Assembly (NCBI GenBank): GCA_015485355.1
Contig: WFTQ01000080.1
Coordinates: forward strand, 1 to 36,991
DNA: 36,991 nt
From: a bacterium
GTDB taxonomy: Bacteria > Calditrichota > Calditrichia > RBG-13-44-9 > J042
Direction: 5' to 3'
How positions within the stretch are numbered: position 1 is the first letter of the stretch; the number at the start of each line of letters is the position of its first letter. Below, piece after piece: positions 35,515-36,991 of this stretch. The notes beneath the pieces are model-generated. The model was not told the origin of the DNA. It was given only the letters and a program-made list of their open reading frames with translations, and did not search any database. The position numbers and the translations under genes were made by a program.

Positions 35515-35548
35515 CCCGAACTGGGGAAGTTTAAATCCCACTTTCGGG
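35515..35548. repeat. Imperfect inverted repeat at the left border of the AT-rich island
   Basis: Arms CCCGAACTGGGGA (35515-35527) and TCCCACTTTCGGG (35536-35548) match at 10 of 13 positions around an 8-nt AT-rich centre. The right arm lies inside the last codons of the deaminase gene. It may be its transcript end or a border of transferred DNA. Confidence 0.45.
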
Positions 35549-35986
35549 AGAATTTTCGTTTCCGCTTGACAGTTCCCCCTCATGTGGATATGGATAAAGC
35601 TCTTTGATTTTGAATTTCTTTATGTTCTCTAATTTTATATCAGAGCATAAGATAATCGTTTTATCCGTAGCATATGTGTATATGGCAACTCTGCACATAC
35701 CGCAAGGCAAACAGGGTTCCTGGCCGCCACCAACGATCAAGATTATTCTTATTGTTGCGTCTAATCCTTCTTCTGTTACCATAGTTCCTACAGCATTTTC
35801 TTCACCATGGATTGTTCTTGCTGCGGGAAAAGGTACCCCATGGTAGATTTTACCTTTCTCAGATAAAATGAATGAACCCACCCCCCAATCAACATCTTCG
35901 GGTGTGCGCGTTTTTAAAAACTTCTCAACCTCTGGTTTTACAGTTTTGATAAATTTTTTTTCTTCATCAGTCAGTTTCATCATCAT
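35531..35986 (-). CDS. Cytidine-deaminase-like zinc hydrolase
   Basis: A 151-residue protein of the cytidine deaminase superfamily. The zinc site is visible: HGEENAVG (His60 ligand, Glu62 proton shuttle) and PCLPCGMC (Cys92 and Cys95). Small size and the PCGMCR context are as in CDA and blasticidin-S deaminase relatives, so a free nucleoside or nucleoside-like substrate is likely. The codons are distinctly more AT-rich than in genes left of 35.2 kb. The last 15 residues (GELSSGNENSPESGI) look like read-through into foreign sequence and overlap an inverted repeat. Three consecutive ATG codons make the exact start uncertain. A folded GC-rich leader lies directly upstream. Confidence 0.85.
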   Translation of the reverse strand: MMMKLTDEEKKFIKTVKPEVEKFLKTRTPEDVDWGVGSFILSEKGKIYHGVPFPAARTIHGEENAVGTMVTEEGLDATIRIILIVGGGQEPCLPCGMCRVAIYTYATDKTIILCSDIKLENIKKFKIKELYPYPHEGELSSGNENSPESGI

Positions 35987-36009
35987 TTCTCAGATAAGTT
36001 TAACACTTG

Positions 36010-36128
36010 ATAAGATTCCGGGTACGCCCGGGAAAGATACGCCTAACGGCCAGCGGATCTCCGAAACCGCCCAAGGCGACTTGGGCGAGGGCTGAGAACC
36101 CGAACCCGATACACACTGTCAGGCGTGT
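36010..36128 (-). ncRNA. GC-rich multi-hairpin block upstream of the deaminase gene
   Basis: In an otherwise AT-rich island this 120-bp block carries, in plus coordinates, CCGGG-tacg-CCCGG (36019-36032), GCGG/CCGC (36053-36070), a perfect 8-bp stem CGCCCAAG-gcga-CTTGGGCG (36068-36087), GGG-ctgagaa-CCC (36089-36101) and ACACAC/GTGTGT (36111-36130). The ends ACGCCT and AGGCGT can close the whole set. It could be a structured leader RNA, a free small RNA, or a folded recombination site: on the minus strand GCCTGAC and GTTAGGC 7-mers flank it. I do not recognise a known RNA class; the strand is assumed from the neighbouring genes. Confidence 0.35.
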
Positions 36129-36144
36129 GTCAACGAATTCCACG

Positions 36145-36306
36145 TCATCTCCTGCGTCTTAACCCATACTCAAAAACTTTATCAGCCAATGCTCGCAAAT
36201 TTCCATCGCCGCTAATATGAGACCAATATATCAAAGATAACGCGACCTCGGTCTTACGTAGCCCCCACCTATTCGTCGCCATATTTAGTATCCATTCCTT
36301 AGCCAT
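36145..36306 (-). pseudogene. Fragment resembling the N terminus of an MjaI-type restriction endonuclease
   Basis: A 53-residue frame begins at an ATG overlapping the stop of the upstream nuclease-domain gene (TAATG). Its start, MAKEWILNMATNRWGL, resembles what I recall of the N termini of MjaI-family type II restriction enzymes. The next residues (RKTEVALSLIYWSH..ADKVFEYGLRRRR) do not follow that family and the frame stops, so I read it as a truncated or rearranged remnant. A real endonuclease would be about 200 residues. The stop/start overlap is typical of methylase-restriction enzyme pairs. Family resemblance is from memory; without a search it could be another small protein. Confidence 0.4.
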
Positions 36307-36749
36307 TATATTTCACCGACTTTTTCAAATTCAATAAATTTTGTCTTATATTTATACTCTCTCGTTCTATCTGCTCTGGCTATACCGGACTTTATGAAAT
36401 AAGCATTCACAAAGATTTTGTTTTTAAGGTAAACATATGCCTCCACAGTATTCCCATCCAAGAGTGCACCATTATCAAACCGCAAGAAAACTTCTTTTTT
36501 TAGAATGTAGTTCTTTAAACATTTTAATGCTTCCTGGCTTTTGATCACGCTAACTCCCAAAAATCTAACTTTTAAACCCGTATTCAGCAGAATTGTTTGT
36601 TCATCAACAATATCTACTACTCTGTAAAGTCTGTCATTCTTAAAATTGAATTTTTTTGGATCAATCTTTGGTTTGGCATCTTTAATCCTCGGAATATAAT
36701 CCCCAACAGAAATTCCCAATATTCCTGATGTATGCATCATTTCAACCAA
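36306..36749 (-). CDS. Staphylococcal-nuclease-like domain protein, probable C-terminal part of a truncated gene
   Basis: Up to 147 residues. From LYRVVDIVDEQTILLNTGLKVRFLGV to AYFIKSGIARADRTREYKYKTKFIEFEK it follows the SNase (thermonuclease) fold: OB strands, GNTVEAYVYLKNKIFVNAYFIKSGIARAD and the C-terminal helix. The calcium/arginine active site (DGDT, Arg-Glu) is not intact: the strand reads VDEQTILL, so catalysis is doubtful. The N-terminal 30 residues (VEMMHTSGILGISVGDYIPRIKDAKPKIDP) look like a linker from a preceding domain, and the frame is open a further 9 codons upstream to a TGA. I suspect the tail of a DNA methyltransferase whose catalytic part is lost. AT-rich codons. Confidence 0.65.
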   Translation of the reverse strand: MVEMMHTSGILGISVGDYIPRIKDAKPKIDPKKFNFKNDRLYRVVDIVDEQTILLNTGLKVRFLGVSVIKSQEALKCLKNYILKKEVFLRFDNGALLDGNTVEAYVYLKNKIFVNAYFIKSGIARADRTREYKYKTKFIEFEKVGEI

Positions 36750-36764
36750 GAAATGGTGATAACA

Positions 36765-36960
36765 TTGCCTTAAACCTCAGGCAAATTCCTCGAGAGGAAA
36801 CTTCACCGTTGACTTGAAGCTCCCAAGCCTTAAGGTGCATATCACCATTGACTTCGGCCGGAATTAGCCTTCCAGCCGATGGGCTCCCAGATGCCCAAAG
36901 CGAAAAAGAATCTTACTTTCTAAACAACCTGTAACATTTCGCATACCAATGACATGGGAG
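36765..36960 (-). ncRNA. Multi-hairpin block, possible mobile-element RNA or right end
   Basis: Consecutive stems in plus coordinates: TTGCCT/AGGCAA (36765-36784), TTCCT-cgag-AGGAA (36786-36799), CTTCA/TGAAG (about 36801-36818), GGTG/CACC (36834-36846), a 10-bp stem TCGGCCGGAA/TTCCAGCCGA (36854-36879) and TGGGC/GCCCA (36880-36897). The 10-bp stem has a C-A mismatch on the plus strand but a G-U wobble on the minus strand, which favours minus-strand RNA. The motif AAGTCAAYGGTGA occurs twice (minus strand). The chain of stems directly abuts the truncated nuclease-domain gene. It could be the 3' RNA of a TnpB/IscB-type element entering from the right, but no such protein is inside the window. Confidence 0.3.
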
Positions 36961-36991
36961 CCTTACTCTTGAGCAATATGGCCGTCCGGGC
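36920..36991 (-). other. Open frame at the right edge, 23 codons then TAG
   Basis: Reading from the window edge on the minus strand gives ARTAILLKSKAPMSLVCEML.. and a TAG at 36920-36922. It could be the extreme C terminus of a transposon-encoded protein preceding the folded block, since IS605-type tnpB genes end in variable Lys/Ala/Pro-rich tails just before a structured right end. Too short to identify. Confidence 0.15.

What the first reader, a model, noticed from the sequence alone, without database searches (positions are those of the whole stretch)
36145..36749. Remnant of a restriction-modification operon: SNase-like tail gene coupled to a restriction-enzyme-like start
Seen: an AT-rich minus-strand gene with an SNase-like domain whose N terminus looks like an interdomain linker, joined by a TAATG stop/start overlap to a 53-codon frame starting MAKEWILNMATNRWGL. 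Known: type II R-M pairs are usually adjacent and often translationally coupled. Inference: the first frame is the C-terminal part of a DNA methyltransferase fused to a nuclease-like OB domain, and the second a truncated MjaI-type endonuclease. An SNase-like domain on a methyltransferase, with degenerate active-site residues, would be an unusual fusion in which the domain may serve DNA binding.
Basis: partly seen in the sequence, partly recalled or inferred. Interest (0 to 1): 0.65.

Follow-up and report, generated by a model that had tools for sequence, protein, structure and literature searches.

The report
Broken MjaI-type restriction-modification operon
A short AT-rich stretch holds the worn-down remains of a bacterial DNA-defence operon: the tail of a DNA-marking enzyme, built on a nuclease fold that has lost its cutting residues, joined to the first 18-20 codons of its partner DNA-cutting enzyme; intact copies with the same odd tail are common across bacteria and archaea, although I found no paper describing it.

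Summary
Window 36306-36749 (-) encodes an SNase-fold domain (AlphaFold plus Foldseek: staphylococcal nuclease, prob 1.00, E 1.8e-6). Its relatives are the C-terminal ~130 residues of ~430-aa type II DNA methyltransferases (PF01555 + PF00565). It ends in TAATG, overlapping a 53-codon frame whose first 18-20 codons match MjaI-family restriction endonucleases (PF09568) at 70-84% identity. The methyltransferase core and the rest of the endonuclease are absent from the window and from the genome (98.7% complete), so this is a remnant.

The fusion is not rare. All 80 best relatives in GTDB genomes (of at least 511) carry the tail, and 67 have an MjaI-type endonuclease downstream. Characterised M.MthZI (CTAG, N4-cytosine) pairs with the same endonuclease family but has no tail. 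The tail has lost the SNase catalytic residues and is strongly basic (+8), so I infer a DNA-binding accessory role, probably in a CTAG-type system. PADLOC already models the full fused protein as a type II methyltransferase, but five literature searches found no discussion of the tail. As a remnant it is ordinary; as a pointer to an undescribed, widespread methyltransferase module it is moderately interesting.

The parts
36306..36749 (-). 147-codon frame (TTG start, in-frame ATGs at codons 4 and 5): SNase-fold C-terminal domain of a type II DNA methyltransferase, core missing
36306..36668 (-). stretch of that frame with clear homology to the methyltransferase tail (residue 28 to the end)
   Evidence: 31% GC
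36669..36749 (-). first ~27 codons: disordered in the model, no significant similarity; at most the last few residues of the core-tail linker
36304..36308 (-). TAATG: stop of the methyltransferase tail overlapping the ATG of the endonuclease frame; the same one-base overlap is kept in 5 of 24 intact loci of this endonuclease subtype and in L105
36253..36306 (-). first 18 codons of an MjaI-family (PF09568) restriction endonuclease, MAKEWILN subtype
36145..36252 (-). rest of the 53-codon frame: no endonuclease similarity, so the gene is truncated here
   Evidence: no PF09568 in the genome
36861..36991 (.). contig end, identical to C58:3230-3360 beside a transposase-like ORF; window 36798-36924 also has a 77% copy in C52 (dispersed repeat bordering the remnant)

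Best explanation
The locus is the decayed remnant of a horizontally acquired type II restriction-modification operon. In the intact form (shown in dozens of genomes) gene 1 is a DNA methyltransferase of the SPPYW type (beta order of motifs) whose C-terminus is a ~130-residue SNase-fold domain, and gene 2, overlapping or soon after it, is an MjaI-family restriction endonuclease. Inferred mode of action: the methyltransferase protects host sites by N4-cytosine methylation, most likely at CTAG, and the endonuclease cuts unmethylated DNA; the tail has lost the SNase catalytic residues and is strongly basic, so it most likely helps the methyltransferase hold DNA rather than cutting it. Here the methyltransferase core and all but ~18-20 codons of the endonuclease are gone, so the remnant can neither modify nor restrict.
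For: Tail homologous to the C-termini of fused methyltransferases; SNase fold; endonuclease start; conserved gene order and overlap in intact loci; core and endonuclease absent from the genome; AT-rich and non-syntenic with the same-genus genome; catalytic residues lost and tail charge +8.2 on average; kinship to the characterised CTAG system MthZI (PMC5867850); CTAG depleted in all 17 intact-system genomes sampled.
Against: The tail frame has no internal stop, so decay is either recent or the frame is kept. The DNA-binding role of the tail is inferred only from charge and fold. CTAG depletion also occurs in relatives without the system (G001, G020), so specificity is not shown. The remnant lies 240 bases from a contig end, so an assembly fault cannot be fully excluded.
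Confidence: 0.9

Rival explanations
1. The 147-codon frame is a functional, domesticated stand-alone protein: the tail was kept after loss of the methyltransferase because a DNA-binding SNase-fold domain is useful by itself.
For: The frame is open for 147 codons with start codons available, and the domain is complete and models confidently.
Against: No complete stand-alone homologue was seen: short matches in relatives lie at contig ends or in broken frames. No obvious ribosome-binding site by eye.
Confidence: 0.12
2. The locus is intact in the organism and only looks broken because of the contig end or an assembly error.
For: The window ends 240 bases upstream of the tail, in a repeat shared with other contigs.
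Against: No methyltransferase core of this family and no PF09568 endonuclease anywhere in a 98.7% complete genome. The endonuclease end is inside the window, followed by 154+ bases of other DNA and a cytidine-deaminase-like gene.
Confidence: 0.05
3. In intact systems the SNase-fold tail is an active nuclease, giving the methyltransferase a second cutting activity.
For: The fold is truly SNase-like, and the R35 position is R or K in 78 of 79.
Against: The equivalents of D21, D40, E43 and R87 are replaced in nearly all members. A nuclease on the protective enzyme would be self-defeating unless tightly controlled (inference).
Confidence: 0.07

Closest known systems
MthZI restriction-modification system, plasmid pFZ1 (M.MthZI: CTAG, N4-cytosine)
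   Same: PF01555 methyltransferase (34% identity over the core) next to an MjaI-family endonuclease; that endonuclease is 53% identical to the one in tailed locus L008
   Different: M.MthZI is 355 aa with no SNase-fold tail and its genes are convergent, not in an overlapping operon; the window copy is truncated
MjaI and BfaI systems (M.MjaI, M.BfaI)
   Same: MjaI gives its name to the endonuclease family PF09568; both methyltransferases are grouped with M.MthZI as CTAG enzymes (PMC5867850)
   Different: Reported at 303-364 aa, too short for the tail (PMC5867850); their sequences were not compared here
PADLOC-DB PDLC03259, type II methyltransferase (423 positions)
   Same: Covers the intact fused protein end to end (E 2e-179) and the window tail (positions 317-422, E 8e-13)
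   Different: A database model without comment on the SNase-like tail; the window has only the tail
Staphylococcal nuclease family (PF00565)
   Same: Same fold and weak sequence match
   Different: Catalytic residues not conserved in the tail family; fused to a methyltransferase
Extended Tudor domains (Tudor-SN family)
   Same: Another SNase fold with mutated catalytic residues reused for binding (PMC7641849)
   Different: Eukaryotic, with an inserted Tudor domain that binds methylarginine; no relation claimed

Membership tests
Type II restriction-modification operon with MjaI-family endonuclease (as a remnant) | DNA methyltransferase core (PF01555) present | tested here: not met
   Absent from window and genome: a remnant of such an operon, not a working member. 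Present in intact relatives.
Type II restriction-modification operon with MjaI-family endonuclease (as a remnant) | MjaI-family endonuclease (PF09568) complete | tested here: not met
   Only the first 18-20 codons remain; no PF09568 match in the genome.
Type II restriction-modification operon with MjaI-family endonuclease (as a remnant) | Gene order and overlap as in intact loci: tailed methyltransferase then endonuclease, same strand | tested here: met
   Same order in 67 of 80 loci; TAATG overlap identical in 5 of 24 loci of the same subtype.
Type II restriction-modification operon with MjaI-family endonuclease (as a remnant) | CTAG recognition and N4-cytosine methylation | not testable with these tools
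   Indirect only: kinship to M.MthZI and CTAG depletion in every intact-system genome, but also in two without.
Staphylococcal nuclease (PF00565) fold | SNase OB fold | tested here: met
   Foldseek prob 1.00, E 1.8e-6, TM 0.64/0.72 to staphylococcal nuclease; Pfam match just under cut-off for the window, above it for relatives.
Staphylococcal nuclease (PF00565) fold | Catalytic residues (D21, R35, D40, E43, R87) | tested here: not met
   D21 to E 70/79, D40 to K 73/79, E43 lost in nearly all, R87 to N 62/79; R35 kept as R/K (R87 column also). Alignment of the N-terminal half was anchored by motif.

The most novel reading that the evidence does not exclude
A widespread lineage of type II methyltransferases, found in many bacterial phyla and some archaea, has recruited a catalytically dead SNase-fold domain as a C-terminal DNA-binding or target-recognition module. 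Its tail-less relatives (M.MthZI, M.MjaI) do without it, so what the module does is open and testable. In the window's genome only this module survives.
Probability: 0.45. Interest if true: 0.5.

Novelty: new variant of a known kind. Interest (0 to 1): 0.36.

Why it matters
The remnant itself is a routine trace of gain and loss of a restriction-modification system. What it points to matters more: at least 511 stretches in GTDB genomes encode relatives of these methyltransferases, all 80 examined carry a degenerate SNase-fold tail, and I found no paper on it. It poses a clean question (what does a dead nuclease do on a protective methylase?) with natural controls: tail-less M.MthZI, and locus L105, where the tail is truncated but the endonuclease is intact.

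Tried and rejected
A single-sequence PDB search with the window tail gave only chance; the profile of 35 relatives was needed to reach staphylococcal nuclease. Profile-profile comparison of the tails with small SNases from relatives recovered only the C-terminal half, so catalytic positions in the N-terminal half were anchored by motif. I tested whether the later codons of the 53-codon frame are a rearranged endonuclease piece: the multiple alignment places them loosely, but tblastn stops at 36253, so rejected. An integron attC site in the GC-rich stretch 35987-36144 was considered; I saw no core-site pair by eye and the stretch is not repeated in the genome, so not pursued. Viral contigs hold only about six close relatives and plasmids none covering 80% of the query, so it is not a phage or plasmid hallmark. 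Five literature searches for an SNase-methyltransferase fusion found none; the library lacks most subscription papers. The AlphaFold model of the full fusion was only moderate (pLDDT 75, pTM 0.61, five models disagreeing), so the placement of the tail against the core was not interpreted.

Full report
WHAT IS THERE. On the minus strand the window holds a 147-codon frame (36306-36749, TTG start) that ends in TAATG, overlapping by one base a 53-codon frame (36145-36306) starting MAKEWILNMATNRWGL. The recognisable tail part (36306-36668) is 31% GC against 53% for the rest of the window. Alone, the first frame is a borderline SNase match (PF00565, 20.9 bits against a cut-off of 21), and the second matches nothing in Pfam or NCBIfam.

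THE FIRST FRAME IS A METHYLTRANSFERASE TAIL. A protein search of 60 relative genomes gave matches in 18, most of them to the C-termini of 430-459-aa frames. The three such proteins scanned carry an N6_N4_Mtase core (PF01555, E 1e-43 or better) followed by an SNase domain above Pfam's cut-off. The window frame aligns with their last ~120-130 residues from its residue 28 onward (35% identity to L005, E 4e-22; 44% to L031). It also matches the last 106 positions of PADLOC's type II methyltransferase model PDLC03259. The core is missing: all three minus-strand frames between the tail and the contig end hold stops, tblastn with about 90 fused proteins finds only the tail, and the genome's only other hits to the fusion profile are to a different, weakly matching methylase on contig C113.

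THE SECOND FRAME IS A TRUNCATED MjaI-FAMILY ENDONUCLEASE. Its first 18-20 codons are 70-84% identical to the starts of intact endonucleases, which are PF09568. Similarity stops at 36253; the later codons match nothing, and no PF09568 protein exists in the genome.

INTACT RELATIVES. In GTDB genomes at least 511 stretches encode relatives of the fused methyltransferase, and the best 80 were taken. All 80 carry the tail, and 67 have a same-strand MjaI-type endonuclease downstream; 3 of the other 13 run into a contig end. This set is ranked by similarity to a tailed query, so 80/80 is biased towards tails. The other direction is cleaner: of 18 main MjaI-type endonuclease loci found in relatives, 17 have a methyltransferase tail next to them, and one (L105) has the tail truncated after ~20 residues but keeps TAATG and an intact endonuclease. 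Two endonuclease subtypes occur: the MAKEWILN type, to which the window belongs (24 of 67 loci), and others (43). Among the 24, 16 overlap the methyltransferase gene, 5 of them with exactly the window's one-base overlap. Hosts include Bacteroidetes, Ignavibacteria, Nitrospirae, Planctomycetes, Deltaproteobacteria, Atribacteria and archaea (record titles). Viral contigs hold only about six close relatives.

THE TAIL DOMAIN. AlphaFold of the window tail with 35 relatives gives pLDDT of about 95 or more over most of residues 41-140 and a disordered start. Foldseek's best matches are all staphylococcal nuclease (E 1.8e-6, prob 1.00, TM 0.64/0.72), and the profile of relatives reaches staphylococcal nuclease by sequence (E 0.006). 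At the catalytic positions, D21 is E in 70/79, D40 is K in 73/79, E43 is rarely acidic, R87 is N in 62/79, and R35 is R or K in 78/79. The R87 column is supported by the alignment; the others were anchored by motif. Mean net charge is +8.2 for the tail against +0.9 for the core. The best reading is an inactive nuclease fold reused to contact DNA. That step is inference.

KNOWN RELATIVES. The nearest characterised system met here is MthZI on plasmid pFZ1. M.MthZI (355 aa, PF01555, no SNase match) is 34% identical over residues 1-257 of the fusion and the similarity stops there; its neighbour is an MjaI-family endonuclease 53% identical to that of L008. PMC5867850 describes M.MthZI as an experimentally characterised N4-cytosine CTAG methylase, groups M.MjaI and M.BfaI with it, and gives lengths of 303-364 aa, too short for the tail. 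The tailed proteins are therefore a distinct architecture. CTAG specificity is plausible: all 17 relatives with intact systems show CTAG at 0.30 or less of expectation (pooled 0.106), the window's genome shows 0.05, and two well-sampled relatives without the system show about 0.5; but two others without it show 0.06 and 0.09. This does not prove specificity.

HISTORY OF THE LOCUS. In the same-genus genome G001 the order YugP-like protease, YacP, histidine kinase is conserved, and DNA similarity ends at window 35174, inside the kinase gene; beyond it G001 has other genes. The AT-rich cytidine-deaminase-like gene and the R-M remnant therefore lie in a stretch that is not syntenic. Upstream of the remnant, the last 131 bases of the window are identical to C58:3230-3360, next to a transposase-like ORF, and a neighbouring stretch has a 77% copy in C52. 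Rearrangement beside a dispersed repeat is a plausible cause of the loss; the event itself is not shown.

VERDICT. The fusion is not rare, only apparently undiscussed: five literature searches found no description, although PADLOC's model covers the whole fused protein.

Noticed in passing
window 35531-35986 (-): AT-rich (39% GC) cytidine-deaminase-like gene (PF00383, E 3e-8) beside the remnant, in the same non-syntenic stretch
   Followed up: partly
window 36798-36991; C58:3230-3360; C52:5487-5622: Dispersed repeat at the contig end; the C58 copy directly follows a transposase-like ORF of 463 codons
   Followed up: partly
L105:1372-2996: Methyltransferase with its SNase-fold tail truncated after ~20 residues, still followed with TAATG by an intact MjaI-type endonuclease: a natural tail-deletion case, or a system in decay
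   Followed up: partly
L006:1868-2467: MjaI-type endonuclease split by an in-frame stop (107 + 91 codons) behind an intact tailed methyltransferase in a relative
   Followed up: no
window, whole; G000 and G001 samples: CTAG occurs once in 36,991 bases (17 expected) and at 0.05-0.06 of expectation in samples of both genomes of the genus
   Followed up: partly
window 35987-36144: GC-rich (55%) non-coding stretch between the two AT-rich genes; no Rfam match, not repeated in the genome
   Followed up: partly
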